From the IMG/VR virus record IMGVR_UViG_3300032278_000901, positions 1-20,227 of that record: a DNA stretch of 20,227 bases, one strand, 5' to 3'. Source of the stretch: a virus. The notes below the pieces were generated by a model. The model was not told where the DNA came from and did not search any database. It was given only the letters and a program-made list of their open reading frames with translations. Of the stretch, positions 1-20,159 are shown one piece after another; position 1 is the stretch's first letter, and each line of letters opens with the position of its first letter. The position numbers were made by a program, and so were the translations under genes.

Positions 1-857
1 GCCACTGTAGTTACGTTAGCTTGAATGCCCGAAACGGTATTAATATGTGTTTGATCGCCTGATGTTGGAGTGGTTCTAAGCCAGGTCGTCGTACCCAGGT
101 CATAGACCATCATTACATTATTGCTAGTATTGAAATATAAGGCTCCGTCAAGCAACGTTGCTCCATCATTGTCAACGCTGGGATCGGAAGACTTTGTACC
201 TAAATATCTGTCATCAAAGGAATCGTAACTGGCCGCAGCCGCTGTAGCTGAAACAGAAGCTGCTGAAGCCTGAGTGCTTGCCGTGGACGCGCTGGCCGCA
301 GCCGCCGTGGCCGAGGCAGCCGTGGCAGCCGTTTGATCGACGTAATTATCCGTGGATACTCCAACATCCCCATCAGCGTCAAAGACTATTGTCTTGTTAG
401 CTCTTAATGTATTTGAAGCTAGTTCTACCGAGGTCCCGGCAGAATCTGAAACTGGTATCTGGATGGATCGCGTTACTTTTTCATCAGCCCTTCTAGCTAA
501 AATGGTGCTTCTATCTAACGCATCCTCGATGACGTTAGGGAAGAACCCACCGCCGGACACAAGGTCTGTACCCTGGGTATAATCAGGTTCGTTTAGTATG
601 GTTATTTTTTCGCCAACCGCAATTGGACTCCAGGCACCGGTCGTCGTAATCGATCCCCCAGGATTGTTATCCTGGTCAGCGTTTAGACTAACAGTATAGT
701 CGGTCGTTAATGTCTTGGTTGATTCAACGCCAGATGAGTTGGTGAATACGACTGCAAGGTCTGCTTGGGCGAACACCTTATATGTGAACGCAAACGTAGT
801 TGTGGAAGCATTTCCTGCGAAAGGTCCTGCCTTTATAGCTTCTGTGGATATTGTCAC
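1..857 (-). CDS. Tail fibre protein, T7 gp17-like N-terminal part (3' end outside window)
   Basis: Receptor-binding tail fibre, attached to the tail by its N-terminus. The reading frame is open from a GTG at 857 to the window edge (285 complete codons). GTG is preceded by GGAGG at 864-868 with 6 bases between, and the frame is closed upstream by a TAA with no ATG or GTG between, so the start is well supported. Residues 1-135 resemble the tail-binding domain of T7-type fibres: FTYKVF near 24, TDYTV near 52, an ITILNEPDYTQGTD stretch near 85-98, and EDALDR near 111. Residues 176-210 are almost only Ala/Ser/Thr. Residues 213-260 carry the FDDRYLG and DGALYFNT-NNVMMVYD pattern common in marine phage fibres, and an I-TV-GI-AN repeat pattern begins at the edge. 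The receptor-binding tip is not in the window. The gene has its own promoter upstream. Confidence 0.9.
   Translation of the reverse strand, partial: MTISTEAIKAGPFAGNASTTTFAFTYKVFAQADLAVVFTNSSGVESTKTLTTDYTVSLNADQDNNPGGSITTTGAWSPIAVGEKITILNEPDYTQGTDLVSGGGFFPNVIEDALDRSTILARRADEKVTRSIQIPVSDSAGTSVELASNTLRANKTIVFDADGDVGVSTDNYVDQTAATAASATAAAASASTASTQASAASVSATAAAASYDSFDDRYLGTKSSDPSVDNDGATLLDGALYFNTSNNVMMVYDLGTTTWLRTTPTSGDQTHINTVSGIQANVTTV
228..332 (-). repeat. Ala/Ser/Thr low-complexity segment of the fibre with in-frame 14-bp repeat
   Basis: This GC-rich stretch encodes about 35 residues of Ala, Ser and Thr with one Gln (fibre residues 176-210). A 14-base direct repeat occurs at 229-242 and 292-305 (CTGGCCGCAGCCGC on the plus strand), exactly 63 bases or 21 codons apart, so slippage or recombination between copies would keep the frame. 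It is probably a trimeric helical linker between the tail-binding domain and the next fibre domain. Confidence 0.6.
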
Positions 858-947: not shown

Positions 948-2384
948 CTATTGTTTTGAGTACCCAAATAATGGGGCTGTTACCTTGTCGGTTTTTCCTT
1001 CAGCCAGGTCTAAGCTGCCCCAGATCACTCGCTCAACCTGGACCGCTGGCCAATGGAAAAACACGCCGCCTGTTTTATTAGCAGCTTTCCATAACTTCTC
1101 ATCATTCTCCATTTGTCCCACTTGCGTGGCAAACTTTGACAATTCTGCAATTCCCCTCATGCCAGCTGGTCCCTGGTACTGGGAGAACCCTTGAGCCATT
1201 CCGACAAACTCTCGGCCTATAAAAATTCCGCTCAATGGATATGCGATATGATCCCTCACGATCTTTTCTCGCATACATGCCCAATCCTTGCCATCGTCAC
1301 ATTCTCCCCTTAACAACGCCCCCCTGACATATTCTTCAATAAGGATAGGGATAGTGTAGAGCAAGAGAAAGTCAACCCCCAGGCGAGCAATTGAGGTAGG
1401 GCTTTTAAAGTTAGTCCCTTTAATGCTGTCTGTAGAGAGGTTATAGGTTGTCTGGAAATAGGACATGAAATTAGTCCATAGCTTTTTCAAAGGACCCCCT
1501 CGCTGAATGCTTGCCAAATCCTTAATGTGTCCTGACCCCTGGGAATCGATCACCGCCTGATCTGCCATCGCGATCGCGTCCTGCTCGCTGGCATTCTCTG
1601 CCTGGGCTTTTTCATACGCCCCAAGCCAGGTCGGAATATCTGCCATCAACTGCGCTTTAGCGATCAGGTAAAAGAAAGTATCATCTATCGGCCCTCTCGC
1701 CTTACTGACAAAACCAGTACCGGCAATCTTGTTACGAATTTCGTTGATCTCTCGATTCATCGTCTTGCCGCGTAGGCGCATAAAAGAACTATGTTCGTAC
1801 ATGAATTTAACCGTACCATCCATCGTCGCTGCCCCACTAAAAAACCTCAACATGGCTTTTGCCACATAAATAGGACCGACTCGGACCATCGACTGAGTAA
1901 GTCCCAGCGGTTGCAATAAGGAAGTTCCAAGGTTCCACCCCATAGCTGCTATAGACATACCCTGCCGGAGCCAGTTCATTGCTCTTTCATGGGTTTGTAC
2001 GGAAGGAACATCGCCAGCTGCGATATCGATAACTGTATTCTTTAACGCCTTATAAGTCGCTGCTCCATAATGTGCCGTGATCGCATCCACCATATCCTGA
2101 TGCCCCAGGATTTTATTGGTATCGATCAACCATTCATGCCAGGCAAGATCATGGATTACCTGGTGAACATGCGAAAAGATAACTCCGAAATCAGCCTTTA
2201 TTTTAATATTAACAGGCCCTTGCGATCTAGCCTCGGTATGTCCTCGCGCTGTCGTAGACCTGCCAGCGGCGCCTAGTCTTGCCTGGTCAGCTGCCGTCTT
2301 AGCCAGGTTGTCAAACGCGATATTGCTTTCATCTTGGTCGAATGTGATAGGGAAGTATCCGCCTCTGATTTGCCCTACAGCGGT
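948..2384 (-). other. C-terminal ejection-protein region with membrane segments (residues 3480-3957)
   Basis: This part resembles the C-terminal region shared by large internal virion proteins of many podoviruses. It has a GMSIAAMGWNLGTSLLQPLG stretch near 3621-3640, then MYEHSSFMRLR near 3674-3684, and a strongly hydrophobic stretch at about 3812-3833 (GVDFLLLYTIPILI). Cys3841 and Cys3849 follow just after it in an acidic loop (ECDDGKDWAC). A role in spanning or touching the host inner membrane during DNA entry is inferred from the hydrophobicity and the family. Confidence 0.55.
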
Positions 2385-5300
2385 GCCTGTATTGACCGGT
2401 AATGCTTCTACTTTTTCCGGAGCTACCCCTGTAACCCTTCGTTCTTTTGCCTCTATCAAAGCCCAGTATTCTTCAATGTAATCCCACATCCCCTGGACAA
2501 ACGTCCAATCCCTTTCATCAAGAGTGGAAAGGATATGGCTCTCAACATCGGACGCGGTCAGGCCGAACCCATCGGTCACCCTGGCACGGTTGGTTTCGTT
2601 CCCCCAGTTCAAAGCAATCATAATACGCTCTTGCTTTGACAGGCTAATATCGATATCAGGCACATACTCCAACTTATACAAACCGCCCTTTAGGGTAGTA
2701 AACTCCAGGGTGTTATAAACGCTAAACAACTCACCGAGCTTGATGTTCGCCTTTTCCTGCATCTCGGCTTGCCAATCCGCCTGGGCATTCATCTTCTTAG
2801 TTACAAACTGCCAGAATGGACCGTTTTTTAAACCATCAAAAACACGCCCGATATTCCCGAATTTGCGGTGTTCTGCCATGAAATTCAGCTTGTCTTTTTT
2901 CCATTGGTCCTGGGGGTTGTTTAGCCCTAACCGTTTGTCTGAATCTTTGATCTTTTTCTTTTTAGCGGTCGCGTTAATTGTAAGCGTAATCTCATTGACC
3001 GCTGATTGCAGGTCGCGTTTTTCCTGCTCCAGGAGAAGTTGGTTTTTGAGCCTTCCCAAGTGATCGATATTTTTTATGGTATCGTACAGTCCCCTAAATT
3101 CATCCATCGGGACCTGCCGATAATGCGTGAGTTCTATCTCGCCCAGGAGCCTTGGGTCTACATTAGGATTATTCCCTTTTGCTAGTTCTGCCTGGACCCA
3201 TGCACCCAGAGTTTCCCTACGTTTCAAGGCTTTCTGCGTTACGCTTTTTCGAATATCAAATTTCCCTAGGAGCCTGTCGATCTCGATCATGTATTCTGGC
3301 TCGATAGCTTTCCTGGCTCCCTTGCTATCCAGCCTGTTAAAGAAACGGACATTCCTGTCTACCTCTTCAAGGGCCTTAGACGCTACTTTTGCAAAGTGAT
3401 GATTTAATACCGCAGCCCTTTTGTGGTCGGTCGCTTCATCTAAATTACCGCGCTTGAGAGCATTCTCTGCTAACCGGTTCGCCCTGGCTTCCGCAGCTGC
3501 AAACTGACTCGGTTTAATATCCATGATTTTCATCCTGCCGATTTTCTCTTCCGCCCAGGCTCGCGCAGCCTTCATCAAAACATTTCCTTTACCGACTCTC
3601 TTGGCTAATGCGCTTAACTCTGCATGCACCGCCTTGGTCCTGGCTTCGTTATGGAGAGCTTCATCAACCGCCTTATCTATGCTTGCGCGGTCACCCAGGG
3701 TGCCAAATAGTTCCAGCATCCTGCGGTCGGTTTCTTCCTCAATAGCCTCTCTCATCGGTTTTGCTTTAACTATGGCATGTATCATTTCATCTGCGGAGGA
3801 GTAACCAGCCAGGTCTTTAAGCAGGTTTACATTAATAGCGTCTTCCGAGTCGGAGATTAAGCCCCAGCGTCCTTTTGGCAGCGTCTTCCAAATAGCATCC
3901 TCTTCGTTGCCGAATGTATCGATTAGACTCTGGATAGAAATCTTTTGATGCGGAGCATCTTCCAGATTGCCCTGTTGCCCTTCCTCCTGGGCGAATTTAA
4001 AGTAATTATCTTCATACGCTTCCGATGCTTCGTACTGATCGTTTTGTATAGAATTGTGTTTTCTGCCAGCGATTTCATTAATGAAAAGGTCTTCAAATAC
4101 ATGTGACTCGTACTTACCGTCTTGAGCGAGGGGATGCAAGTATCCATACTGCACAAGCTGCGTTCCCATATCATCGATACTCAACCCACCTGTCGTCCTG
4201 GCAACCTTGCGGAAAGTACCGTATTCGGTTTTCTTATCTACGCCCCATTGTGCATACAGTTCATCCTGTTTAATTCCGCCTAGTTTCCCGATAGCCACGA
4301 ACAGAGAATCTACCTCTGGGGTAACATCTGTTTTATGGCTTTTAGTGGTTTTTTTCTTATCAACCGGCTGCCGTAACCAGGCAACCAATTTGTATTCTTG
4401 CTTCTCTGCGACCGTTTGTTCTGCTTCATTCTTGACCGCTTCTCGCTGGGACCTGATCTCTCGTTTCTTTTCTAGCAGGATACGGTTAGTCCCGATGCGG
4501 AGCCATTTCATATTGTCCAGGCTTTTAGTCCGCAACTTCTCATCCGCTTCTTCTACATCGTTAGTCACCGCTCGCTGGTACTCTAGCCACCGGTCAGGGT
4601 CCATCTTGATAACCTCGTTATTCTCAAACAGAGGTTTCATCCTGTTTATTTCCCTGGCGTTTGCGATCTCCTCTTCGGTTGCCAGCATACGGTCGAACAC
4701 TTCCCTCACTTCGTCACTAAGGCTAACTTTTAGACCGCTTCGGATCGTTGTGTATATCCGCTTCATCCATTCAGCGAAACTTCGGAATATTCCTTGGAGT
4801 TCCAGGGTAGGGGCGTTGCCTTCAAATAGGTATGCTTCAAACGCCCTGGCCACTTTCTCATGTCCGGTACGGCGTTCCTCTAAAGTCATATTGTTCCAGG
4901 CTGCCAGATCAAGTTTTTCTCCGCCGACAAACTTGAGCAGCTTGTCCATATCATCTTTGATTTTCTGCGGTGCGTTAGGCTGGTTTGCCAGGTAGCGTAG
5001 TTGTTCGTAAAAGAAATGACCAAGTTCATGGAGATAAGTGGATAGATCAGCATTTTCCAGGAGCAAAATAACATTATCCCCTTTGCTGATATCCGGACCA
5101 AACTGCAAGGCCCCTCGCTTTAACCCCTGTTTCTCCTGGAATAGGGCGATCCTTTTTGTTTTACCTTCTTCATCGGTTAGAGCCTCGCGAACCTGGGCAA
5201 GATCAAATCCTGGTTGAAAACCCCTGGTGTATTCTTCGGGCGTGAGATCACCAGCTGGATCGATCTTCGCATTCTTGACCCCTAGCTTTTTCAAAACATC

Positions 5301-8300
5301 TTTAGCGACACTCGGTAATATCTTGTCGTAATAATCTTTCATGCCATCAGTAGCAACCTGGACCTCTATGCCGGACAACGCTTTATCGTTTGCTTCTAGG
5401 TCCTCTATAACAGAACCAGTTTCTTGCTCCAATAGTGTTATTTTTCTAATTGCTACGGTTTCAATCCCCATAGCCGCCTTTTTGTCCATCTCGAATTTAT
5501 GTGCTGCCGTAGCGAGTTCAAGAACTGCGTCCTTCGGCAAATCTGTTTTCGAATGGTTGAACAGCTTCTCCCAGAGGGTCAGGTGCATGTTCCTAGTTTT
5601 AGATTTATCTCTCTTGGGGTTCTGCTTGTCCAGAAATATTTCTGCTCCCAGGTCCACTATCGAATCTGTTACCTTTGCCCCAAAACCGGCAGAGATTTGA
5701 TATTTGCTCTTGAACTCGTTATATAAGATGGTTTGCTCTATCTGGGCTGCCTTATATTTATGCTGCGCTTCCTTCCTCTCAAACTTTGCTTTCTCAAACT
5801 TAGCTAGCACTATCGGCGTTGGCGGTTCAGACCGGATCAATCGGGCTGCCGCGTCCCCACCGATATACTTCGGCAGATCAGCTTCCTCGACATGGTCCGC
5901 TATCTCGACAAATTCCTTTTCTCCTCGCGGCCTGGCTCTTAGGACCTTGGTATCAGGGTTCCAGATAATGCCGGAAATGAATCGCTCCATGTCATACCTG
6001 GTATCTTGCTGGAGTCCACTTGTCCATTCGATACGATCGAAACCATTGCTGATCGCATGATGGATCATCCGCTTGAGTGCCAGGGCGGTATACTCTTTAG
6101 TGTCATCTATAAATGGGGCTGGCGGAGGATCATAGTCGGTCGTAACTGGGACCGTCATAGCTCGCCTGGCATCTGCCCAATCGGATTGAAGTTCTTGGAG
6201 GTAAAGAACCCTGGCGTGTTCTCCCTCACCCATCGCTGCGGTTTCTTCTTGGTGAAGCGCATTCCTCGCGTCATTTAAAGCATCTACAACTTCCTTTTCC
6301 TGCTTTTCCAATTCCAAGAAATGCTGAGATGTGGCAGGGGTTCCATACATTTTTTTACGGATCGCCGTCAATTCCTTGTCCAGCCTAGCCATTTCCTCTC
6401 TTTTCGCGACCAATGCAGGTTGATCTTTTTCGTATTTTACGAACCCGACTCTTTCATCCGCTCTGACATGCACCAGGATATTAGGATTAGGGAAATGGGA
6501 ATCGTGTTTAAATTCTTTAACAGGAGGATCAGAGAAACGACCAGAATAACTACCGTGAACAGGACCTGGAACAACGGAGAGAACGGTAAAATATCTGGTT
6601 TCATTTTGCCAGTAGTAATTAAGCTCCTCCTTGGTAAAAATATCGCTATTAGACTTTAGGGCAAGGAAGTTTGCGGACCTTGCGCTGTCCTTGAACTCGG
6701 CGAGCCAGGCTGCCCTTCGCTGCGATTGGTTCCCCCCTCCTGGCGCGTCCTTCGCTTTCATCTCTGCCCATTTGATAATCTTTTCTCTAAGCGCGTGAGC
6801 TTTGGCTGGCACCGCAACTGCCATCTTATTTTCCGGCAGCGTGATTAACCACTCGACATAATCCTTGCCGCCTTCATGCATCCACTCGGTGAACTTGGTA
6901 ACTCCTTCGCGTTTAACCTGTCTACGCTCATCTAAGAAATCCGCTTCAGCTTGTTTCCTGGCCTCACGTTTCATCTCCCTAAGTTTTATCCATATAGGAT
7001 TTGTTACTTCCTCTCCGAATAAAGGTGTATGTGCTTCAAATTCCAATATCTCTTTGTCGATGGCTTTCCATTCCCAATCCACTAAATCTACTACTGTGAA
7101 ATTTTCTGGAGTCAAAGTATCCATTAGCACGGTGACCTGCGCTGCCGTATCTTTGTCTGCGTAGACTTCTTTTGGGTCCGCTCCTGCTTTAAGTTTTTTT
7201 ATATTTTCCACCGCTCGCCCATATTGAAGGTCGTATACAAAGTCGTCCATCTTCTCAGCAACAATCTCCCTGGTCCGCTCTTCAACCGCCAGATCAATAT
7301 CTTCCATCTTCTCCTCATACCAGGCGAACTCGCTGCCATCCTGCGGAATCCCATTGGTAACATCAACCAGCTTGACTCCGTTATCGTTGAGGTATTGTTT
7401 GATCTGGTCGTGGGTAAACTTAGGCTGCTTCATCTTGCGGACTTTCTCTAACTCCGCTTTAGCATTGTCTAGGCTCTCTTGGCGTAGACCTATAATAGTT
7501 TCTACATCGGGATATTGTTTGTACCCCTCTCTTCTTTGTTTCCCAACATCCGCTTGAGCCATGTTCAGGTCTTCTTGCCTTAACTTAACTTTATTCTCAG
7601 CTTCCGCAATTAAATATTTTCTATGGTCGAGGCTGAGATAGTTTTCCAAACCGGTAGCCGCAATTTCTCCAGCTTTAACTTTAGGGAGTTTGCGAATAAT
7701 GTTTAACCATTCTTCGGCTGACTTGGGTTGGGCCTTGCTAGGCTTGAGGTTGTGGACTGCGTCTGCGAGGGTAGAGTAATGCCAGGTTGGGTTTACTTCT
7801 TCGGCAACTTCGTCTTGGTAGAGTTCTTGTGGTCCCTCTATCTTTTTCTCTACCTGGAAAGGAGCTTGTCCTTTCATCGGCGCAAGTTTCTGCGGTTGCG
7901 TGTAAGGCTTTACACTTTCAATTTCCCATACATGGGTTTCTTTGCGGCTGCCGAAATCAAACTCTGATCCCTTTTCAACCTGATGCTGTTTACGGAGTTT
8001 GTTAAATTCTTTTGCGGTTTTAACCTGGCGAGAACCCTTGAACACTACCTCTCCAAGGGCTTCATTGTTTTCGTTCTTTAAGACGATAGGTACGCCTATA
8101 TGTTTTGCTGGGATTGCTCTGCCCCTGACTTCCAGCGTCTTACCGCCGGATATAATCTTTTCATCCCAAGGGCCACGGATGAATAGTTTTGTTATTTCTC
8201 CTTTTTCGTTCCAGGGGAGTTCTTGGGAGATTCCGCTATCATCTCGTTTAACTCCCTCTCCTCCTTCTCGATGTGGGCCAGTTGTTTCAGTTGTTTCGTT

Positions 8301-11300
8301 ATCAACGACTCCTTCTCCTTTTTGGACAGGTTCTGTCCGTATATTGCGTTTCCCTTCATAAAGAGTTCGGAGGATTCCTGTAAATTGCTTTTCATCGATT
8401 TCGTTGGCATCTTTAAGCTCCTTCAGCTTTTGTTCAATTTCCGCCAGGGACTTGTCAACTTGCTTCCTGGTTTGTTCCTGCGGCCCATTGACCTGCTTAA
8501 TCTGGGCAAAAACCTTTTTAACATTCTCGGTTTTATTATCACCATAGAAACATCCGGCAGCCCCAAATTTATCACAAGCGGTACAAGTCCACAAGCCTTC
8601 TTCCGCTGTCCTATCGGCAATACTAACAAAACTCGTTCCTTTTTTGGTCGTCATCTTTCCGCCATCGACAGGGCAGAGCTTCTTGGTCATCTTGTTAAAT
8701 ACCTTCGGGAACCGCTCCTTTACATCCGCCCTGGTTATTTCTCCGCCTTTCATGTTGACCGGCAGATACACCGCGACTCGATCGTTAATCTCTTCCAGTT
8801 GACTTTCGCTCATACCGTCAGTAATGGTGACCGCCAGCTGCATGTCCGGATTTTCCATCGCCAGGTTAAAGTTAGACGCATCGATAGAAAGCATTTTTAG
8901 ATTGAAGTCGCTGACCTTTTTCAGCATGTCAGGTCGCTTGGAGAATATCTGCATTCGAATCCCACGGCGGTTTAGCTCTTTGATTAAAACAACCTGGGCT
9001 GCGGATAAATCCCCTTTATCGTTGATACGCAAAGCCAGCCCCTCATGCCCTTGCGCGGTAACATTGTAATTTTGAGCGACCGTATCTGCCAGGACATCTG
9101 GGTGATTCTCCGCAACCCATTCGGTAAATTCTGCCTTCATCAGTTCCGCTGGTCTGGCATTTGCCAGGGAAGCGTAGCACCAGATCGCGCAATCCTTACT
9201 GGGGTTACAGTTCTTAAACGATCCGGAAATATCGGTTTCCGCTTTGCGGTTGTCCCCGATAAACTGATAGGACCTGGCAAATTTTAAAGCAGCCTCTGGG
9301 CTATGTTTAAAAGCCTTAATCATGGAATATCGGTTCAAATCATCCTTACCCCATAACTTACTTGTCGCTATGTCCTGGACATCACGCCCCTCAACGGCTC
9401 GATAGAATAACTCGCGGATCGCCATCCCCCTCATAGCCGCAGCTGCCCAGGCAGTTCCTTCATGCGTCTTCATATTGGCCTTAAACAGCTTTGCTTCGGC
9501 CTTGCTCATGCGACCAATGGTTTCCTTTACAGCTTCATTAATCTCTGGATAGGGGGTGTTTAGGGTTCCTGTTTCCTCTGTCCTGGACGGACCTTTCTGC
9601 GCCGCTTGCTCCAAGATATCAGGGCTGGTCGGATCGAACTTCTTAGCATGGATGGATTTTATTTGTTCTGGATGGAAGGCGATGTAGGAGTCGCCTGGTC
9701 CCTCGGCGTGGTTTTGATAAACTATACCATCGTACCCCAACTCCTCAAGCTTGTTTTTTACAGCGGCAATATTTTTTCCTTCGTCAACTATATCCTTTAT
9801 GGCTTTGTAAGCCTCGTAAGGTACAGCCGCCTCCTGGATTGCCTCTAAAAATAGTGCCGGATCAGAGAAATCCCCAGCATCATTCATCCTTAGAGGATTC
9901 TTAATACTAAGATAAACAGGAATGATTCTACTATCTCGATCTGCCTTAACATCCATTCCCACGGCAGATTTTATCCTGGACAAAGGTTCCTCTCTTCTCC
10001 AGGTAGCTAAAGTGCCAAGCCTGTTGTTGGCTTGCTCAATCGTGCCAAAATGAGAGCCTAAATCGAACTCCGCCTCCGTCTTAAAAACCCCAAAATCTTC
10101 CTCTGCTTGTGTCGCATGATAAAGAACCAGCGGTTCACCGGCTGCATCCACTACCTGGGAACCTTCGAAAAACGCATCGAACCCTGGTTCTGCTTTAACC
10201 GCAGCGGCAGCCTGGTCTAAGGTTTGGGTTTGGGCTTTTTCACCTTTTAAGTCAGCGGCTAAATCTGGGTCATCTTCAAACATCTTCTGCAAACCTGCTT
10301 CAGCATCCGATATCTCAGCTTTTAATTTAGAGTGTTCTTCACTACCTTCCTTAGTTTCATTTAATTGTTTATTTAATTTGTCTATTCTTGTAGTTACAAA
10401 TCGTGCCATTTCTGGAGAAATCCCTGTGCCTTCTCCGGTATCCATTCTTTCTAAAAATTTAATTTGTAATTTAACAGCAACAAGATTTAATCTCATTCTA
10501 GCAAGTTGCTCTTCAACCGTTCCCCTTCTAGGATGATCTTTTAGCTTTTTGTTCCCTTCGGGATTAGCTAATGTTTTTTCTATAAAGGACTGTTTCTTTT
10601 TAAGACCTTCAAGATTGAAATCCTGGAATGTATGTAAAACTGATTGTTGCTCAGAATGTAAAACATCTTCAATAGATGGGGTTGCAGCGGTAGGTTGGTC
10701 TAAGGCTTGGGTTTGTTGCTGATCTCTATTTCTCTCCAATCCTTTTAGTGATTGGTTGCGTACAGTTTTATCCCCATCGATCACGCGAAAACCGTCATAT
10801 CCTTTTTCTCTTAACTCTTCAACCGTAGGATCGCCCATTGCCTGGTGTTCTTCGACTGTCATCACCAGGGGTTTTTTTATAGAATCGACCTTGAGCGACA
10901 TAATATTGTTAAATTCCTCAAGGGACATTTCCATAGCCTCTGCCGTGACTCTTTGGTTAGTAGCGTAGACCGTAGCCATCTTCGTAGCGTTCTCTTCCGA
11001 GGTTCCGCCTTCAATCAACTGGTCGCGATGGTCGTTTAAGATGTTGTCAAACGTATCATTTTCTTTTTGCCCTTCCATGTGCTTACGGAGAATAGTTTCT
11101 GCATCGTCATCGAGCCTTTCTGCATCTTCAACGTATTGCCGCGCTTCGGTAGGAGTGAACCCATCAGCATCAAACTTTGCATGCGGCATCAACGCAGCAT
11201 GCGCTTCGGGGTTCCTGGCAATATTCGATGCATAATCTGGCAAAGGTATCCTGATCGGGCTGTCGGTTTCCAGGGCGGTTTCGTATTGATCTGTTAGCCC

Positions 11301-12821
11301 CAACTCTTCCATCACCGCAGCTGCATCATCCTGGTAAAATTCCTGCACCGCTGCGGAGTCCACATAAACGTCGCTGACCGGACCCTCTTCGGTAACAGCT
11401 TCTACATACTCGCGGTGCCTATCTGGTAATTGTTCTGCTAGGTTGGATTCCTGGGCGTTCTCTCCCAGGGCAGTCATCATCTTTTCGTTAATATCAGCCT
11501 GGCTGACTTTCTTTCGTTCTGCGTAGTACCGAGCCATTCCGCCAGGAGAACCCAGCACCGCAGACCCAGCAAACACTTTAATGCCTATGGTCCCTATCTG
11601 TTTGGCCGCTTCTTTTAGTTTCCTCGGCGTATCTAATTCCGAGTCAATATCCTTTGAGCTTATATGCCTGGCAACTTCTCGACTTAAAAAGTTGTTTATC
11701 TCCTGGAGAACTTCCGTCCCAGCCTCACCTCCGGCAGACTTAAATATAGTCGCTATCGCCAATACCAAAGCCTGTTTCTTGGAAACGGTCCCAAGTTTAG
11801 CCTTCTTAGCAATCGCCTTGACGATCGCTGATTTGATCGGCTTGGTAAACAACCCAATTCCTATCACTTCCAGGGACCCATTCACCCAGCCGACGACATG
11901 AGAGGTATTCTTTGCCAGCCCAGGCTCAAAACCCATGCCTATCATTTCTTTTTCAGCATGGCCAGCTTCAACCTGTCTTGCCTGGTTAAACACTTCTCCC
12001 ATCGCAGCAATCGTACCCATAAGGGTCCCAGCTGCCGGAACGGTTACAAGCTCTTCGGGCAACCCAGCGAGAGGCCCTGCTTGCCCAGCTATAGCCGCAG
12101 TAGTGGCACCACCCAATGCTCCGGCGGATGCCTTTTTCGCAATTTCATCCAGCCCCTCAAACACTTGACCGACCAGCAATGCCGCTTCTCCCAGCGGTCC
12201 TGACGGACCAAAAATACCATCCTTGTCCGCATGGTATCCTTCCAGGATTTTATCGATCTCCTCGATCCTTTTTATACTTTCTAGTTTTTGTGTTTCATTG
12301 AGATTACCTTTGTTGTAGATACGCATTCCTTGTTCGTGAACCAACCGGCCTTCATCGAACATATTCCCCATGTCCTTCCAGATAGTTTCGTACCAGGACA
12401 GGTTCTCTATGTCCTCCGGCACCGCCATGACTTCCGCCAGGGTTCTATCTTTAAGCAACTCTTTGAGGAAAGGAGCTTGCCCCAGGGCTTTATTAGCTTG
12501 GTTGATCTTGATCTGATTCTCTGCAAACTTCGGATCCGCTTCGACTCGTTCCGCTGGCACCTCTAACTCACCAGCCATTTGCTGATTTTTAATTACTTCC
12601 TGCGGATTACCTTCCAGGGATGTTTCCAGGTTATGTTCAACGCGAGCCGCATCTTCCTCTTCCTGGATACCATGCATCGCCTCACGCAACTTCTTGAGGC
12701 CATCGCCTTCTACCGCTAAAGGAGAAAGTCCAGTTTCCTGCTCGCCTGGGTCAGGCTCGCCGATCAACGGTTCATCGAGAACCGGATCGCGTTCCATCTC
12801 ATAGTCAGTCAGTAAACCCAT
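948..12821 (-). CDS. Giant polyvalent internal virion / DNA-ejection protein (T7 gp16 position)
   Basis: A 3,957-residue protein placed like T7 gp16, the largest protein of the ejected inner core, but almost three times its length. ATG at 12821 directly follows the stop of the gp15-like gene (TAAATG), with GGAG 9 bases upstream. Regions in order: acidic leader (1-100); Gly/Ala-rich and hydrophobic stretches (205-275, 310-365, 400-430); a conserved phage segment with an IPLPDYA motif (485-640); an ART-like relic (640-690); a coiled-coil cassette (703-870); ART-like domain (875-1072); Gp88/radical-SAM-like domain (1090-1450); ASCH (1542-1645); long polyvalent domain (1680-2555); HELGH peptidase (2570-2740); GGLSIDDM domain (2834-2925); helical region; C-terminal ejection-protein region (3480-3957). 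I find nine cysteines, seven of them in the Gp88-like domain. No lytic transglycosylase motif is recognisable. It probably enters the host with the DNA; this is inferred from gene order and domain type. Confidence 0.88.
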   Translation of the reverse strand: MGLLTDYEMERDPVLDEPLIGEPDPGEQETGLSPLAVEGDGLKKLREAMHGIQEEEDAARVEHNLETSLEGNPQEVIKNQQMAGELEVPAERVEADPKFAENQIKINQANKALGQAPFLKELLKDRTLAEVMAVPEDIENLSWYETIWKDMGNMFDEGRLVHEQGMRIYNKGNLNETQKLESIKRIEEIDKILEGYHADKDGIFGPSGPLGEAALLVGQVFEGLDEIAKKASAGALGGATTAAIAGQAGPLAGLPEELVTVPAAGTLMGTIAAMGEVFNQARQVEAGHAEKEMIGMGFEPGLAKNTSHVVGWVNGSLEVIGIGLFTKPIKSAIVKAIAKKAKLGTVSKKQALVLAIATIFKSAGGEAGTEVLQEINNFLSREVARHISSKDIDSELDTPRKLKEAAKQIGTIGIKVFAGSAVLGSPGGMARYYAERKKVSQADINEKMMTALGENAQESNLAEQLPDRHREYVEAVTEEGPVSDVYVDSAAVQEFYQDDAAAVMEELGLTDQYETALETDSPIRIPLPDYASNIARNPEAHAALMPHAKFDADGFTPTEARQYVEDAERLDDDAETILRKHMEGQKENDTFDNILNDHRDQLIEGGTSEENATKMATVYATNQRVTAEAMEMSLEEFNNIMSLKVDSIKKPLVMTVEEHQAMGDPTVEELREKGYDGFRVIDGDKTVRNQSLKGLERNRDQQQTQALDQPTAATPSIEDVLHSEQQSVLHTFQDFNLEGLKKKQSFIEKTLANPEGNKKLKDHPRRGTVEEQLARMRLNLVAVKLQIKFLERMDTGEGTGISPEMARFVTTRIDKLNKQLNETKEGSEEHSKLKAEISDAEAGLQKMFEDDPDLAADLKGEKAQTQTLDQAAAAVKAEPGFDAFFEGSQVVDAAGEPLVLYHATQAEEDFGVFKTEAEFDLGSHFGTIEQANNRLGTLATWRREEPLSRIKSAVGMDVKADRDSRIIPVYLSIKNPLRMNDAGDFSDPALFLEAIQEAAVPYEAYKAIKDIVDEGKNIAAVKNKLEELGYDGIVYQNHAEGPGDSYIAFHPEQIKSIHAKKFDPTSPDILEQAAQKGPSRTEETGTLNTPYPEINEAVKETIGRMSKAEAKLFKANMKTHEGTAWAAAAMRGMAIRELFYRAVEGRDVQDIATSKLWGKDDLNRYSMIKAFKHSPEAALKFARSYQFIGDNRKAETDISGSFKNCNPSKDCAIWCYASLANARPAELMKAEFTEWVAENHPDVLADTVAQNYNVTAQGHEGLALRINDKGDLSAAQVVLIKELNRRGIRMQIFSKRPDMLKKVSDFNLKMLSIDASNFNLAMENPDMQLAVTITDGMSESQLEEINDRVAVYLPVNMKGGEITRADVKERFPKVFNKMTKKLCPVDGGKMTTKKGTSFVSIADRTAEEGLWTCTACDKFGAAGCFYGDNKTENVKKVFAQIKQVNGPQEQTRKQVDKSLAEIEQKLKELKDANEIDEKQFTGILRTLYEGKRNIRTEPVQKGEGVVDNETTETTGPHREGGEGVKRDDSGISQELPWNEKGEITKLFIRGPWDEKIISGGKTLEVRGRAIPAKHIGVPIVLKNENNEALGEVVFKGSRQVKTAKEFNKLRKQHQVEKGSEFDFGSRKETHVWEIESVKPYTQPQKLAPMKGQAPFQVEKKIEGPQELYQDEVAEEVNPTWHYSTLADAVHNLKPSKAQPKSAEEWLNIIRKLPKVKAGEIAATGLENYLSLDHRKYLIAEAENKVKLRQEDLNMAQADVGKQRREGYKQYPDVETIIGLRQESLDNAKAELEKVRKMKQPKFTHDQIKQYLNDNGVKLVDVTNGIPQDGSEFAWYEEKMEDIDLAVEERTREIVAEKMDDFVYDLQYGRAVENIKKLKAGADPKEVYADKDTAAQVTVLMDTLTPENFTVVDLVDWEWKAIDKEILEFEAHTPLFGEEVTNPIWIKLREMKREARKQAEADFLDERRQVKREGVTKFTEWMHEGGKDYVEWLITLPENKMAVAVPAKAHALREKIIKWAEMKAKDAPGGGNQSQRRAAWLAEFKDSARSANFLALKSNSDIFTKEELNYYWQNETRYFTVLSVVPGPVHGSYSGRFSDPPVKEFKHDSHFPNPNILVHVRADERVGFVKYEKDQPALVAKREEMARLDKELTAIRKKMYGTPATSQHFLELEKQEKEVVDALNDARNALHQEETAAMGEGEHARVLYLQELQSDWADARRAMTVPVTTDYDPPPAPFIDDTKEYTALALKRMIHHAISNGFDRIEWTSGLQQDTRYDMERFISGIIWNPDTKVLRARPRGEKEFVEIADHVEEADLPKYIGGDAAARLIRSEPPTPIVLAKFEKAKFERKEAQHKYKAAQIEQTILYNEFKSKYQISAGFGAKVTDSIVDLGAEIFLDKQNPKRDKSKTRNMHLTLWEKLFNHSKTDLPKDAVLELATAAHKFEMDKKAAMGIETVAIRKITLLEQETGSVIEDLEANDKALSGIEVQVATDGMKDYYDKILPSVAKDVLKKLGVKNAKIDPAGDLTPEEYTRGFQPGFDLAQVREALTDEEGKTKRIALFQEKQGLKRGALQFGPDISKGDNVILLLENADLSTYLHELGHFFYEQLRYLANQPNAPQKIKDDMDKLLKFVGGEKLDLAAWNNMTLEERRTGHEKVARAFEAYLFEGNAPTLELQGIFRSFAEWMKRIYTTIRSGLKVSLSDEVREVFDRMLATEEEIANAREINRMKPLFENNEVIKMDPDRWLEYQRAVTNDVEEADEKLRTKSLDNMKWLRIGTNRILLEKKREIRSQREAVKNEAEQTVAEKQEYKLVAWLRQPVDKKKTTKSHKTDVTPEVDSLFVAIGKLGGIKQDELYAQWGVDKKTEYGTFRKVARTTGGLSIDDMGTQLVQYGYLHPLAQDGKYESHVFEDLFINEIAGRKHNSIQNDQYEASEAYEDNYFKFAQEEGQQGNLEDAPHQKISIQSLIDTFGNEEDAIWKTLPKGRWGLISDSEDAINVNLLKDLAGYSSADEMIHAIVKAKPMREAIEEETDRRMLELFGTLGDRASIDKAVDEALHNEARTKAVHAELSALAKRVGKGNVLMKAARAWAEEKIGRMKIMDIKPSQFAAAEARANRLAENALKRGNLDEATDHKRAAVLNHHFAKVASKALEEVDRNVRFFNRLDSKGARKAIEPEYMIEIDRLLGKFDIRKSVTQKALKRRETLGAWVQAELAKGNNPNVDPRLLGEIELTHYRQVPMDEFRGLYDTIKNIDHLGRLKNQLLLEQEKRDLQSAVNEITLTINATAKKKKIKDSDKRLGLNNPQDQWKKDKLNFMAEHRKFGNIGRVFDGLKNGPFWQFVTKKMNAQADWQAEMQEKANIKLGELFSVYNTLEFTTLKGGLYKLEYVPDIDISLSKQERIMIALNWGNETNRARVTDGFGLTASDVESHILSTLDERDWTFVQGMWDYIEEYWALIEAKERRVTGVAPEKVEALPVNTGTAVGQIRGGYFPITFDQDESNIAFDNLAKTAADQARLGAAGRSTTARGHTEARSQGPVNIKIKADFGVIFSHVHQVIHDLAWHEWLIDTNKILGHQDMVDAITAHYGAATYKALKNTVIDIAAGDVPSVQTHERAMNWLRQGMSIAAMGWNLGTSLLQPLGLTQSMVRVGPIYVAKAMLRFFSGAATMDGTVKFMYEHSSFMRLRGKTMNREINEIRNKIAGTGFVSKARGPIDDTFFYLIAKAQLMADIPTWLGAYEKAQAENASEQDAIAMADQAVIDSQGSGHIKDLASIQRGGPLKKLWTNFMSYFQTTYNLSTDSIKGTNFKSPTSIARLGVDFLLLYTIPILIEEYVRGALLRGECDDGKDWACMREKIVRDHIAYPLSGIFIGREFVGMAQGFSQYQGPAGMRGIAELSKFATQVGQMENDEKLWKAANKTGGVFFHWPAVQVERVIWGSLDLAEGKTDKVTAPLFGYSKQ
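4047..4322 (-). other. Polyvalent-protein-associated GGLSIDDM domain (residues 2834-2925)
   Basis: A compact segment of about 90 residues with an IGKLGGIKQDEL motif, then TTGGLSIDDM, then QLVQYGYL, then FEDLFINEIAG. This order (Lys-Leu-Gly-Gly, then Gly-Gly-x-Ser-x-Asp-x-Met, then Gly-Tyr) recurs in many giant phage and mobile-element proteins next to metallopeptidase domains, as here. Its function is not known to me. Confidence 0.5.
4602..5114 (-). other. HELGH zincin-type metallopeptidase domain (residues 2570-2740)
   Basis: The HExxH motif is HELGH at residues 2598-2602, preceded by a hydrophobic strand (ILLLENADLSTYL). About 55 residues later comes HEKVARAFEAYLFEG (2654-2668), whose Glu2662 is a plausible third zinc ligand. 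FAEWMKRIY follows near 2682. This arrangement is typical of the peptidase domains found in polyvalent phage proteins. It could process the giant protein itself, other core proteins or a host protein; the sequence does not decide. Confidence 0.75.
5157..7784 (-). other. Long conserved phage polyvalent domain, ELQSDW type (residues 1680-2555)
   Basis: Conserved blocks appear in the order seen in many giant phage proteins: SAEEWLNIIRKLPKVKAGE then GLENYL (1701-1729); FTHDQIKQYLNDNGVKL (1802-1818); SHFPNPNILVHVR (2108-2120); YLQELQSDWADARR (2207-2220); APFIDDTKEYTALALKRM (2235-2252); IEWTSGLQQDTRY (2264-2276); and VATDGMKDYYDKILPSVAKD (2489-2508). Between blocks lie charged helical insertions at about 1735-1800, 1930-2060, 2140-2200 and 2335-2475, which make the domain unusually long. 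The family is widespread but has no assigned activity that I know of. Confidence 0.65.
7887..8198 (-). other. ASCH (PUA-like) domain (residues 1542-1645)
   Basis: The segment begins ITKLFIRGPWDEKIISGGKT and contains the ASCH signature G-x-K-x-x-E-x-R at Gly1559, Lys1561, Glu1564 and Arg1566. A strand follows (VPIVLKN), then ALGEVVFKG, and the segment closes with HVWEIESVKPY. ASCH domains are beta-barrel folds related to PUA and are thought to bind RNA or modified bases. Its target here is unknown. Confidence 0.7.
8472..9554 (-). other. Gp88/radical-SAM-like cysteine domain (residues 1090-1450)
   Basis: After a helical lead-in (1090-1190) the segment shows Cys1205-x5-Cys1211-x3-Cys1215-Tyr, then LALRINDKGDLS (1262-1273), then MQIFSKRPDMLKKV (1290-1303), LSIDASN (1311-1317) and YLPVNM. 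It closes with Cys1383 and Cys1413-x2-Cys1416-x7-Cys1424. The order (cysteine trio with CY, Arg-to-Gly-Asp strand, SKRP strand, C-terminal cysteine cluster) resembles mycobacteriophage L5 Gp88-type proteins, which look like radical-SAM-type TIM barrels. The first trio is not the classical CxxxCxxC, so SAM chemistry is unproven. A bound Fe-S cluster or zinc is likely, because nearly all cysteines of the giant protein are here. Confidence 0.55.
9606..10214 (-). other. ADP-ribosyltransferase-like domain of polyvalent type (residues 870-1072)
   Basis: The domain starts GFDAFFEGSQVVDAAGEPLV, followed by the YHAT motif (901-904), FGTIEQANNRL (925-935), VYLSIKNPLRM (969-979), LGYDGIVYQN (1028-1037) and YIAFHPEQIKS (1046-1056). 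This is the pattern of ART-type domains found in polyvalent phage and conjugative-element proteins, which are predicted to transfer ADP-ribose from NAD to a protein. A catalytic Glu cannot be assigned by eye. If active, it would modify host targets upon ejection, as T4 Alt does. Confidence 0.7.
10201..10232 (-). repeat. Imperfect 32-bp direct repeat, copy 2 (in gene order)
   Basis: This 32-base segment matches 10684-10715 at 28 of 32 positions. It encodes giant-protein residues 864-874 (QTQTLDQAAAA). It lies directly in front of the intact ART-like domain and 483 bases, or exactly 161 codons, after the other copy. Confidence 0.75.
10684..10715 (-). repeat. Imperfect 32-bp direct repeat, copy 1 (in gene order)
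   Basis: This is the partner of 10201-10232, encoding residues 703-713 (QTQALDQPTAA). It lies just after the short ART-like relic at residues 640-690. The DNA between the copies is AT-rich: by hand count about 32% GC at 10321-10620, against 45-57% in two other 60-base lines counted from the same gene. It encodes a charged coiled-coil segment. The copies probably mark the ends of an inserted or duplicated cassette. Confidence 0.75.
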
Positions 12822-15254
12822 TTATTCGTTCTCCGATTTTAATTCTTCAGCTTGTTTAATAATATAATCATAAGCCTTCGCTGCGTATGGTCCATAATCA
12901 CGCAGAATGATTGGCCTGGCTTTCTTCATACCGGACACGCTCAGCCCTCGGCTATGCTCTAGCAAGGTTCTGCCGGAAATAGTTTTATTCCCATCCGGGT
13001 TTTCTATACGGACAGAACTTAGAACAACCTTCGGATGTTGCCCTCGCCAAAATTCAGCCAGAACTTGATAAGTATCGACCTGACCGCTTGCCTTGATCTC
13101 ACCGGCCAACTGCCTGGAAGTTTTGCTGTCCATCTCACTAAGCCATACTTCTATTTTGTTGATAGGCACAACTTCATCGTCTACCAGGACATACATGTTT
13201 TTAGTTTGTACTCCGTCTGCCAGGGCCTTGTCGTAATACTCATCAGCATCATCGCCAAACTGAAAAAATCCTTCCTGCGGATCGGGTTTATCCCCTGGGT
13301 CTGCATAATAAATCTTATTGTTAGCAATGCGTCTTGCCACGGTTGTTTTTACATGGGGAGGCATATCACTACCCCAATCACGTTTCCAGTTATCTTCCTC
13401 ACGCTCTGCCGCACTCCCCAAAACTGCGAACAACTGGACATTGTCTATTTTCTTCTTATTGGTTGCCGCTATCAATTCGTTATCCAGCCGCGTTGTAATG
13501 CCGCGTCCTTGAGTCGCGGTACTAGCAACGGCAATCGGATATTTCTTTTCCAGTTGTTTTTCGTATTGAGGGGTTAGCGTCCTCTCGACAATCGCTTTAA
13601 ACTCTTTATCATCTGGCTTTCTCCCATTGTTTTTCGGGTCTGCTGTAAAAGCATCGACTTCGGTTTGGACCGCTTCCCTAGCCGTTCCTCGCATCGGTGC
13701 GTAGTCTGCTCCTGTCCAACCCCACCTATCAAACCTGTCTGCCAGCCTGTCTTTCCGGCTGCCTTCCGCTCCCTCTTTCAGTAGAGTAGTTTTTCTTCGC
13801 ATGAAAGATTGCAGGGCTTGTTGTCTAAGTTTGCCGCCAAACTCTCTCTCTATATTAAGAGCCTTGAATTTAGCCGGATTGTTGTAATACATTTTCTCCA
13901 GGATTTCATAATTAGTAGAATGTACTTCTTCTGGAATATTCTGGACTCCTAGAAGTTGCTGTTTGAGTTCAGCATCCAGTTGGTTTTTTTCGGTGACCCC
14001 CAGGTTATCGTAGTGAGCTTGCATCGATGGCGGCAGGTTGTTAAAGTCAATCGGAGTGCCAGCGTCCCCACCTTCTATCGAAACTTGTCCATCTTTGACG
14101 TTTAACTGGATTTGTGGGTTAATACCCTTGTTTTGTCTTATCCACTCGAAAACAGCATTGGCGGAGTTCTCGGTCCTTTTCGCATCGCCTTTAGCCGCTG
14201 CCGTTTCTAAATAACGGTACTTAACCATCGCCGCACTTGAAATTTCCTTATTTTTCTCACCGAATATAATGGTCAAAGGATTGTTAGACTCCAATGCCTT
14301 GGCTGCCAGTGAAGAGGACTCAACATCCACCGTTTCTTTCCACATCCTGTTCCCTATGGTTTTGCGAGTTGCCTGGTTAATATCTTTCTTATGTGTTTCA
14401 AAATATTGTTTGGCGGTCTGCAAATTCTCGGCGCGTTTATCTCCGCTGTTTAAAAGATTATCAATCACGCCCTGGTGTACCGTGGACTTGTATACATGTA
14501 TATCTATCGCGAGAGAGTTTTTATCGGTCAGCCCCATGGCCTTCGCATTCGCCCTGATCGCATTAACTCCTTCCAAGATATGTTTGGTGCGTTTTGCATC
14601 AGCCCCTGGCGTTCCAGTACCTGCCTGGATTGCCTCTGTCGCAGCCCACTCTGCCGCTTTCTTGTTAGACGCGATCATCGCTGTTACTCGTTCTTTATCT
14701 TCATGCAGCCCGATCGCATGCAGGTGAGCGGATCGACGATCCTTGATGATCGTATCTACCGCCAGTTTTTGTCGGCCATCCATCTCTTGGTACTTATCAA
14801 GAAAATCATTATGCAACCTTGACATCTCCCCACGTTGTGTAAAGGCGGCCTGGGCATCAGGGTCTTTCTCATCCCAGAGAATCTCTGCCCCTTCTGGGCG
14901 ATGGTAATCATCTATCTGGTTTGGCCTTAAAGGGGACTTATAGTTTTCCCAAAGAGAAGATTCTCTACCTAATATCCCTTTTGCATTGTTACCTCTTTTA
15001 TTAGAAGCAGATCGTTTCCGCGCAAACTCGTATTCCTTCCAGGCGGACGATGCGTCCTGCACAATCGTCAGGTCCAACTGGTTTTGTTTAGCAATCACAA
15101 AGTCCTGTATTTTATCCGCTGCTACACCGAACATTTTAGCAAGTTCCACTTCCTCCCCTCCCAGGTTCTCGATCGTAGCGGTATTACGAAACGAAGGGGC
15201 GTTAAGTGGTTTTAGTTTTACAGTTGGCTCATTAACGAAAGGCATTCTTGGCAT
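12822..15254 (-). CDS. Internal virion protein, T7 gp15-like position (810 aa)
   Basis: Probable inner-core and ejection protein. In T7, gp15 (747 aa) forms a tube with gp16 across the periplasm; the length here (810 aa) is similar. The protein is mostly charged helix with no transmembrane segment, no recognisable enzyme motif and no cysteine that I can find. The N-terminus (PTVKLKPLNAPSF, then LGGEEVELAKMFG) resembles internal virion proteins of marine podoviruses. The assignment rests mainly on its place between gp14-like and gp16-like genes. ATG at 15254 lies 5 bases after the gp14-like stop with only a weak AGG upstream; ATG at 15245 is an alternative. Its TAA is directly followed by the ATG of the giant gene, suggesting translational coupling. 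Confidence 0.72.
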   Translation of the reverse strand: MPRMPFVNEPTVKLKPLNAPSFRNTATIENLGGEEVELAKMFGVAADKIQDFVIAKQNQLDLTIVQDASSAWKEYEFARKRSASNKRGNNAKGILGRESSLWENYKSPLRPNQIDDYHRPEGAEILWDEKDPDAQAAFTQRGEMSRLHNDFLDKYQEMDGRQKLAVDTIIKDRRSAHLHAIGLHEDKERVTAMIASNKKAAEWAATEAIQAGTGTPGADAKRTKHILEGVNAIRANAKAMGLTDKNSLAIDIHVYKSTVHQGVIDNLLNSGDKRAENLQTAKQYFETHKKDINQATRKTIGNRMWKETVDVESSSLAAKALESNNPLTIIFGEKNKEISSAAMVKYRYLETAAAKGDAKRTENSANAVFEWIRQNKGINPQIQLNVKDGQVSIEGGDAGTPIDFNNLPPSMQAHYDNLGVTEKNQLDAELKQQLLGVQNIPEEVHSTNYEILEKMYYNNPAKFKALNIEREFGGKLRQQALQSFMRRKTTLLKEGAEGSRKDRLADRFDRWGWTGADYAPMRGTAREAVQTEVDAFTADPKNNGRKPDDKEFKAIVERTLTPQYEKQLEKKYPIAVASTATQGRGITTRLDNELIAATNKKKIDNVQLFAVLGSAAEREEDNWKRDWGSDMPPHVKTTVARRIANNKIYYADPGDKPDPQEGFFQFGDDADEYYDKALADGVQTKNMYVLVDDEVVPINKIEVWLSEMDSKTSRQLAGEIKASGQVDTYQVLAEFWRGQHPKVVLSSVRIENPDGNKTISGRTLLEHSRGLSVSGMKKARPIILRDYGPYAAKAYDYIIKQAEELKSENE

Positions 15255-19141: not shown

Positions 19142-19150
19142 TATTGCTCC

Positions 19151-20062: not shown

Positions 20063-20081
20063 AAATCACCTCTTTTTAAGG

Positions 20082-20159
20082 TTAAACCATCCAGTAAAAG
20101 ACGGCTGATACTGCCCAGCCAGCCATGAACCAGATAAAATTATTCCAATTCATTTCCAT
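20082..20159 (-). CDS. 25-residue single-pass membrane peptide
   Basis: A very short ORF, ATG at 20159 to TAA at 20082, with a strong AAGGAG (20167-20172) and a 7-base gap. The peptide begins MEMNWNNF and continues as an unbroken hydrophobic run rich in Trp, Phe, Ala and Val to the last residue (IWFMAGWAVSAVFYWMV), enough for one membrane-spanning helix with the N-terminus polar. It lies between the terminator and the 98-residue gene, whose GTG follows 19 bases later. Length is below most gene-calling limits. Membrane insertion is predicted from composition; function is unknown and I see no holin signature beyond size. Confidence 0.6.
   Translation of the reverse strand: MEMNWNNFIWFMAGWAVSAVFYWMV

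What the first reader, a model, noticed from the sequence alone, without database searches (positions are those of the whole stretch)
948..12821. A 3,957-residue virion ejection protein fused to a row of effector-like domains
One uninterrupted reading frame joins a gp16-like ejection scaffold to ART-like, Gp88/radical-SAM-like, ASCH, zinc-peptidase and two polyvalent-type domains. Polyvalent proteins are known from phages and conjugative elements as carriers of proteins that enter the cell with the DNA. The specific combination and order seen here, in the T7 gp16 slot, could be a pre-assembled first-strike toolkit against host defence or metabolism.
Basis: partly seen in the sequence, partly recalled or inferred. 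Interest (0 to 1): 0.75.

Follow-up and report, generated by a model that had tools for sequence, protein, structure and literature searches.

The report
Phage injection protein with swappable cargo
A bacterial virus gene encodes a 3,957-residue protein whose two ends are a conserved frame found at the DNA-injection-protein position of hundreds of short-tailed phages, and whose middle is a fast-changing slot holding effector-type enzyme domains that probably enter the host with the DNA; proteins of this kind are known, but this one is among the largest and shows domain-by-domain cargo replacement.

Summary
The 3,957-aa frame is real (948-12821, minus strand). It is a very large member of the Bbp10-type protein of BPP-1-like podoviruses and sits after tail-tube, gp14-like and gp15-slot genes and before the tail fibre. 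It has no detectable sequence homology to T7 gp16. Across 106 relatives the architecture is fixed. An N-terminal part (LPD22 plus a membrane-active segment) and a C-terminal part (zincin, HExxH in 103/106, plus ~1,050 aa ending in a hydrophobic segment) flank a slot of 41-2,066 aa. In 55 slots Pfam finds ART (20), PBECR RNases, GNAT, GGDEF, RelA/SpoT, Zeta toxin, RadC and Pol-beta domains. In the window the slot holds ART (strong), a Gp88-like module and ASCH (both sub-threshold but supported by relatives), and a ~430-aa domain seen in >120 phage contigs but absent from Pfam. Against a relative with 96% identical flanking DNA, ART and Gp88 are saturated with changes, ASCH is 98% identical, and a 150-aa piece is present or absent: domain-wise replacement under purifying selection. 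Virion packaging and cytoplasmic delivery are inferred, not shown. 'Radical SAM' is not supported. Verdict: a known kind (polyvalent protein), a new variant, with a testable chassis-and-slot logic.

The parts
948..12821 (-). P0001, 3,957-aa Bbp10-type ejection-position polyvalent protein
   Evidence: single ORF; homologues in INPHARED and IMG/VR
10722..12821 (-). N-terminal chassis, residues 1-700
   Evidence: 96% DNA identity to L004, dS 0.10; HMM found in 74 giants
12357..12638 (-). LPD22 domain, residues 62-155
   Evidence: PF18834 E 6.8e-6, up to E 3.5e-25 in relatives
11811..12047 (-). N-terminal hydrophobic segments, residues 259-337
   Evidence: Kyte-Doolittle peaks; 41 of 67 relatives have one above threshold in this part
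10233..10685 (-). presence/absence segment, residues ~713-863, absent from L004
9639..10148 (-). ART-PolyVal domain, residues 892-1061 (HFGT subclass)
   Evidence: PF18760 E 1.1e-14; alignments
8397..9587 (-). Gp88-like module, residues 1079-1475
   Evidence: 67% identical module in L100-L102; PF17338 weak in L004 and L100
7869..8183 (-). ASCH domain, residues 1547-1651
   Evidence: PF04266 18 bits, phrog_3136, PDB 1wk2/2dp9 alignment, GxKxxExR motif
7452..7781 (-). X1 segment ('FYSxL...QWL' motif), residues 1681-1790
   Evidence: shared with Nsp18, L022, L027, L030, L045, L060, L067
5118..6899 (-). X domain ('QSDW...WTSGLQQxxRY'), residues ~1975-2568
   Evidence: profile E 6.9e-35; in >=120 IMG/VR stretches; no Pfam match; model pLDDT 80
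4434..5084 (-). zincin-like metallopeptidase domain of the chassis, residues 2580-2796
   Evidence: conserved in 93 giants; phrog_9880
5016..5030 (-). HELGH zinc-binding motif, residues 2598-2602
   Evidence: invariant H, E and H columns in alignment A9; 103/106 giants
951..3944 (-). C-terminal chassis, residues 2960-3957
   Evidence: >=571 relatives in IMG/VR, 45 loci in bacterial genomes
1311..1394 (-). C-terminal hydrophobic segment, residues 3810-3837
   Evidence: 63 of 67 relatives, clustered 100-150 residues from the C-terminus
12822..15254 (-). gp15-slot protein, 810 aa, no detectable peptidoglycan hydrolase
15260..15778 (-). gp14-like internal virion protein
   Evidence: phrog_418 E 5.6e-11
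15775..16275 (-). GNAT acetyltransferase inside the internal-virion cluster
   Evidence: PF00583 E 4.8e-9, phrog_1249
16256..19141 (-). tail tube/nozzle protein
   Evidence: phrog_376 E 1e-197
19151..19765 (-). tail tubular protein A-like
   Evidence: phrog_394 E 2e-43
3..857 (-). tail fibre N-terminal part (runs off the contig)
   Evidence: phrog_38058, phrog_1640

Best explanation
This is the ejection-position protein of a BPP-1-like short-tailed phage, built as a conserved chassis with one cargo slot. Shown by sequence: (i) the N-terminal chassis (LPD22 plus hydrophobic segments) and the C-terminal chassis (zincin plus about 1,050 residues ending in a hydrophobic segment) are conserved and size-constant; (ii) the stretch between them varies from almost nothing to about 2,000 residues and carries host-modifying enzyme domains; (iii) in the window it holds ART, Gp88-like, ASCH and X domains; (iv) these domains are replaced one at a time between phages whose chassis is nearly identical, while staying under purifying selection. 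Inferred: the protein is packaged as one of the few internal proteins and leaves the capsid with the DNA. The two membrane-active regions that flank the slot anchor it in the inner membrane, as proposed for T7 gp16, so the cargo faces the cytoplasm. There the ART and the other domains act on host targets in the first minutes. The zincin, kept even where the slot is empty, probably serves assembly or ejection of the chassis and may also cut cargo free.
For: Synteny: tail tube, GNAT, gp14-like, gp15 slot, giant, tail fibre, as in BPP-1, SR18, Carin1 and others. Chassis homology: 25 INPHARED records with at least 80% cover of the C-terminal 1,402 aa; >=571 IMG/VR stretches. Slot: N part ends at 571+-94, zincin-to-end 1294+-63, slot 49-2066 aa in 74 giants; 41-2066 aa in 106 giants. 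Slot content: 22 Pfam families, mostly effector or polyvalent types; ART in 20 of 55. Window against L004: flanks 96% DNA identity, dS 0.10-0.15; ART-Gp88 47-66% with pS 0.75-0.94 but pN 0.17-0.45; ASCH 98-100%; a 150-aa presence/absence piece. Other pairs: L033/L052 C-part 89% and L038/L048 88%, with hardly alignable slots. Gp88 module 67% identical, starting exactly at the ART end, in L100-L102, in a gene beside a different internal virion protein (phrog_6651) and the same gene order. Hydrophobic peaks: 63/67 in the C part, 41/67 in the N part, 7/67 in the slot.
Against: No proteomics: no paper found here reports the protein in virions. T7 gp16 is not a sequence homologue, so the membrane topology is by analogy. 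The ART strand-2 tyrosine of the published H-Y-D triad aligns with histidine (HFGT), although Tunturi_5 and L022 share it. ASCH and Gp88 are below curated thresholds.
Confidence: 0.7

Rival explanations
1. A self-processing polyprotein: the zincin cuts the giant before packaging, and only the chassis parts enter the virion; the slot products act late in the producing cell.
For: HExxH is conserved in 103/106 relatives; phage P1 DdrB is processed before packaging (PMC5512222).
Against: The zincin is kept in members with an essentially empty slot (MZH 49 aa, L050 50 aa), so cargo release is not its only role. N4 vRNAP with a comparable zincin is packaged uncut (PMC5512222).
Confidence: 0.15
2. 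A structural lysin or tape-measure-like protein, as annotated in relatives ('lysis protein', 'lysin', 'crystallin motif'), with the middle as filler.
For: Existing annotations.
Against: No peptidoglycan hydrolase domain found in P0001; slot size varies 50-fold, unlike a length ruler; slots carry intracellular-type enzymes.
Confidence: 0.05
3. The slot is drifting debris: neutral insertions tolerated in a loop.
For: Large size variation; only some of each slot is covered by Pfam matches.
Against: pN is far below pS across ART-Gp88 at saturation; invariant residues in the X domain across 78 sequences; recurring known enzyme families.
Confidence: 0.03
4. Cargo acts against competing phages or prophages (superinfection) rather than against host defence or metabolism.
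For: Iyer et al. raise this for polyvalent domains captured by hosts (PMC5512222); ART and RNase targets are unknown.
Against: Nothing specific; not testable here.
Confidence: 0.1

Closest known systems
Bbp10 of Bordetella phage BPP-1 and homologues (Caulobacter SR18 gp040c, Cobetia Carin1 gp32, Pseudomonas AF gp16, Nostoc Nsp-JY18)
   Same: same gene position; homologous LPD22, N-chassis, zincin and C-terminal chassis
   Different: BPP-1 carries one small slot domain (PBECR1, 203-aa slot), SR18 only ART; the window has a 1,953-aa slot with ART, Gp88-like, ASCH, X1 and X
Polyvalent proteins (Iyer et al. 2017, PMC5512222)
   Same: disparate enzyme domains in one phage polypeptide near late virion genes; ART, LPD22, zincin
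   Different: ASCH and Gp88 are not mentioned in the main text of that paper; the two-sided chassis with a single swappable slot is a layout of BPP-1-like phages found here
T7 gp16
   Same: position after gp14/gp15-like genes and before the tail fibre; hydrophobic regions flanking the central part
   Different: no sequence homology, no transglycosylase, three times longer
Phage N4 virion RNA polymerase
   Same: N-terminal part, enzyme cargo, HExxH zincin, then ~1,100-aa mostly helical C-terminal region (PMC12633501)
   Different: no sequence homology detected (hhalign probability 0.4%); cargo is an RNA polymerase
T4 Alt ADP-ribosyltransferase
   Same: virion-delivered ART model
   Different: different ART clade (R-S-E against H-Y-D), stand-alone protein (PMC5512222)

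Membership tests
Polyvalent proteins | two or more domains of disparate activity in one polypeptide | tested here: met
   ART above cut-off, zincin, ASCH, Gp88-like, LPD22
Polyvalent proteins | encoded among late virion genes of a phage | tested here: met
   neighbours are tail tube, internal virion protein, tail fibre
Polyvalent proteins | packaged and injected with the DNA | not testable with these tools
   needs virion proteomics and an injection assay
Bbp10 / phrog_9880 family of BPP-1-like podoviruses | homologous zincin plus C-terminal ~1,050 aa | tested here: met
   phrog_9880 1078 bits; SR18 41.6%, BPP-1 35.9%
Bbp10 / phrog_9880 family of BPP-1-like podoviruses | position after gp14-like and gp15-slot genes, before tail fibre | tested here: met
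T7 gp16 family | sequence homology to gp16 | tested here: not met
   hhalign probability 0.8%, E 0.07; single T7 sequence on one side
T7 gp16 family | N-terminal transglycosylase | tested here: not met
   no Pfam or NCBIfam hit in P0001 or P0002
T7 gp16 family | membrane-active regions flanking the central part | tested here: inconclusive
   hydrophobic peaks in N and C parts, rare in the slot; membrane insertion itself not tested
ART-PolyVal (Tox-ART-HYD2) | profile match above curated cut-off | tested here: met
   55.8 bits against 31.2
ART-PolyVal (Tox-ART-HYD2) | H-Y-D catalytic triad | tested here: inconclusive
   H (LYHAT) and D (GYDG) present; the Y position is H in HFGT, as in L022 and Tunturi_5
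Gp88 (PF17338) | profile match above curated cut-off | tested here: inconclusive
   none in the window; 17.9 and 18.9 bits in relatives against 24.4
Radical SAM | CxxxCxxC cluster motif in a TIM-barrel-like fold | tested here: not met
   motif is CNPSKDCAIWC; model pLDDT 62 with alternating strands and helices but no significant PDB match
ASCH | profile match above curated cut-off | tested here: not met
   18 bits against 21.2
ASCH | GxKxxExR motif and full-length alignment with a solved ASCH-like protein | tested here: inconclusive
   GGKTLEVR present; 1wk2/2dp9 aligned over 108 residues at E ~0.9
Zincin metallopeptidase | HExxH on a conserved helix | tested here: met
   HELGH; 103/106 relatives
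GNAT (for the X domain) | profile or fold similarity to GNATs | tested here: inconclusive
   FemA/FemX ranked at prob 0.80/0.72 but E 0.46/1.4; hhalign to P0004 negative
N4 virion RNA polymerase | homology of zincin plus C-terminal region | tested here: not met
   hhalign probability 0.4%; layout alone is alike

The most novel reading that the evidence does not exclude
The Bbp10-type protein is a general-purpose effector delivery device. A membrane-anchored ejection chassis displays whatever is in its single slot to the host cytoplasm, and phages re-arm by exchanging single domains at domain borders by recombination while the rest of the virion stays the same. The X domain (invariant E, R, Q, W, T, G, R, Y; possibly GNAT-like) is an undescribed enzyme family of this arsenal.
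Probability: 0.35. Interest if true: 0.8.

Novelty: new variant of a known kind. Interest (0 to 1): 0.55.

Why it matters
Effector-bearing phage polyvalent proteins were predicted in 2017 largely from domain lists. Here one large family offers a clean natural experiment: constant flanks, a slot whose content ranges from empty to about 2,000 residues, and near-identical phages that differ in single cargo domains. That makes 'does the ejection protein deliver effectors into the cytoplasm?' directly testable in cultured relatives, for instance Caulobacter phage SR18 with a single ART in the slot. The slot is also a prospecting site: over 100 slots could be mined for unknown host-modifying enzymes, beginning with the X domain, which Pfam lacks.

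Tried and rejected
Radical SAM for the Gp88-like module: rejected on motif and fold search. Homology of the C-terminal chassis with T7 gp16, with N4 vRNAP C-terminal region and with any PDB chain: none found. GNAT identity of the X domain: suggestive topology, and FemA/FemX in the PDB list, but not significant. Gp88 module in plasmids, INPHARED phages and 84,980 genomes: no match; the INPHARED miss at this sensitivity does not exclude distant members, since BFVD lists 'Gene product 88 domain-containing' giants among the X-domain fold matches. A defence-system hit (PADLOC): none. A lysozyme in the gp15-slot protein P0002: none found, and no similarity to gp15-slot proteins of 14 relatives. L106 as a Gp88 relative: rejected, it is a UDG/DNA polymerase protein with a chance local match.

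Full report
OBSERVATION. The frame at 948-12821 is a single ORF of 3,957 codons on the minus strand. The window is a 20,227-base viral contig, not known to be a complete genome. All major genes point the same way, in the order tail tubular A (19151-19765), tail tube/nozzle (16256-19141), GNAT (15775-16275), gp14-like internal virion protein (15260-15778), an 810-aa protein in the gp15 slot (12822-15254), the giant, and a tail fibre (3-857). Three IMG/VR contigs carry the full or partial fusion: L004 (3,802 aa), L002 and L003. L005 is identical over window 7904-~16,900 and cut inside the giant.

WHAT THE SCAFFOLD IS. The C-terminal 1,402 residues match 43 INPHARED records, 25 of them over at least 80% of the query. 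The best are Caulobacter phages SR18, JessA, RapA and BL94 (41.6%) and Bordetella BPP-1 Bbp10 (35.9%); the list runs to Vibrio, Xanthomonas, Pseudomonas, Acinetobacter, Nostoc and Microcystis phages. The gene order around them is the same. A profile of the last ~980 residues has at least 571 relatives in IMG/VR, and 45 loci in bacterial genome assemblies, mostly Beta-, Gamma- and Alphaproteobacteria. Profile-profile comparison finds no homology with T7 gp16 or with the N4 virion RNA polymerase C-terminal region. So 'gp16-like' holds for position and layout, not for descent as far as these tools see.

CHASSIS AND SLOT. I translated the giant from 15 phage records and 80 IMG/VR loci and mapped window-derived HMMs on them. 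In 74 proteins with both ends, the N-terminal part ends at 571+-94, the part from zincin to C-terminus is 1294+-63, and the stretch between them is 49 to 2,066 residues (SD 494). With prophage loci added, 106 proteins have slots of 41-2,066. Vibrio MZH0603 and L050 are essentially empty (49 and 50 aa); the window (1,953) is second only to Nostoc phage Nsp-JY18 (2,066). HExxH is kept in 103/106, including the two empty ones printed, so the zincin belongs to the chassis. Hydrophobic 19-residue peaks occur in the C part of 63/67 members (clustered 100-150 residues from the end), in the N part of 41/67, and in the slot of 7/67. Putative membrane segments therefore flank the slot, as TMH I and TMH II flank the cytoplasmic gp16-C in T7 (PMC8954989). 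Position and hydropathy are shown; cytoplasmic display of the slot is inference.

WHAT SITS IN THE SLOT. Pfam on 55 slots of relatives gives 22 families: ART-PolyVal in 20, PBECR5 in 10, DUF7178 in 6, GNAT in about 4, GGDEF, DUF3293, PBECR3 and MuF_C in 2 each, and single RadC, Zeta toxin, PBECR1, RelA/SpoT, Pol-beta, LPD3 and LPD23 among others. This is the polyvalent arsenal of Iyer et al. (PMC5512222). In the window: ART 892-1061; Gp88-like 1079-1475; ASCH 1547-1651; X1 1681-1790; X ~1975-2568. X is a ~430-residue domain. A pattern scan for WTTGEQQ gave at least 120 IMG/VR stretches; 121 of 122 ORFs with the motif, these plus the loci, fit the profile, most of them over its full length, and only 26 of those ORFs also carry this chassis's zincin. 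Ten columns are invariant over 78 sequences and Pfam has no model for it. Its model is confident (pLDDT 80). PDB matches are not significant, although FemA/FemX (GNAT superfamily) appear with prob 0.80/0.72. BFVD matches are phage giants annotated Gp88, ART-PolyVal and large polyvalent domain, so Gp88 and X meet in other phage proteins too.

DOMAIN-WISE REPLACEMENT. Window and L004 are 96% identical in DNA over residues 1-712 and 2469-3957 (dS 0.10 and 0.15). Between them: residues ~713-863 are absent from L004; ART and Gp88 (880-1530) fall to 47-66% DNA identity with synonymous sites saturated (pS 0.75-0.94) but pN 0.17-0.45; ASCH and the following stretch (1533-1747) return to 97.7%; 1784-2071 is 87-89%; the WTSG core of X (2233-2352) is 94.7%. 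One lineage thus received divergent alleles of ART-Gp88 while keeping ASCH, and the imported part is under purifying selection. The pattern recurs at protein level: C-parts 89% (L033/L052) and 88% (L038/L048) identical with slots that hardly align; MZH/1.185.O 73% with 50 against 494 aa. The Gp88 module also appears, 67% identical and beginning just after where the window's ART ends, in three contigs (L100-L102), in a gene of a different phage with the same gene order but another internal virion protein (phrog_6651). Sharing cargo across unrelated ejection-position proteins is what a delivered module predicts.

MECHANISM. Most likely the protein is one of the internal virion proteins, leaves the capsid with the DNA, anchors in the inner membrane by its flanks and presents the slot enzymes to the cytoplasm. 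ART would ADP-ribosylate host proteins as T4 Alt does. ASCH is a fold with an amidohydrolase member (E. coli YqfB acts on ac4C, PMC6972931 abstract), so a role on RNA or modified bases is plausible. Gp88 and X remain unassigned. None of these activities is shown.

LIMITS. Virion content was not testable and no paper found here reports it. ASCH and Gp88 calls are sub-threshold. The ART has H in place of the triad Y, as in L022 and Tunturi_5. Breakpoints rest on one close DNA pair plus protein-level pairs; relatives were the best 80 hits, with some near-duplicates.

VERDICT. The concept is known (polyvalent proteins); the protein is a new variant, and the two-sided chassis with one swappable slot gives a testable system.

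Noticed in passing
window 16900-20091 against L005: L005 is 100% identical to the window over 7904-~16,900 and then drops abruptly to 69-84% inside the tail nozzle gene: a recombination border or an assembly chimera in one of the two contigs.
   Followed up: partly
window 12822-15254: The 810-aa protein in the gp15 slot shows no similarity to the gp15-slot proteins of 14 relatives and no peptidoglycan hydrolase, although many relatives are annotated with a lysozyme or M23 peptidase there.
   Followed up: partly
window 15775-16275: A GNAT acetyltransferase is encoded inside the internal-virion-protein cluster; L100 has a GNAT-like protein at the same position that matches an 'internal virion protein' family.
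   Followed up: no
window 16256-19141: The tail nozzle protein carries two E1_FCCH-type stretches (PF16190, E 7e-19), as annotated in Vibrio relatives.
   Followed up: no
L100 4873-10351: The Gp88-bearing ORF (806 aa) overlaps the next, internal-virion-protein ORF (1025 aa) by 14 nt, and the second begins with sequence matching the window's post-Gp88 linker (1466-1535): split gene, frameshift or two genes.
   Followed up: no
L018 (Limnohabitans phage DC33): The record is filed as Inoviridae, but its gene content is that of a BPP-1-like podovirus.
   Followed up: no
L019 (vir555): A contig assigned to Methanomicrobiales carries a divergent chassis protein; host assignment may be doubtful.
   Followed up: no
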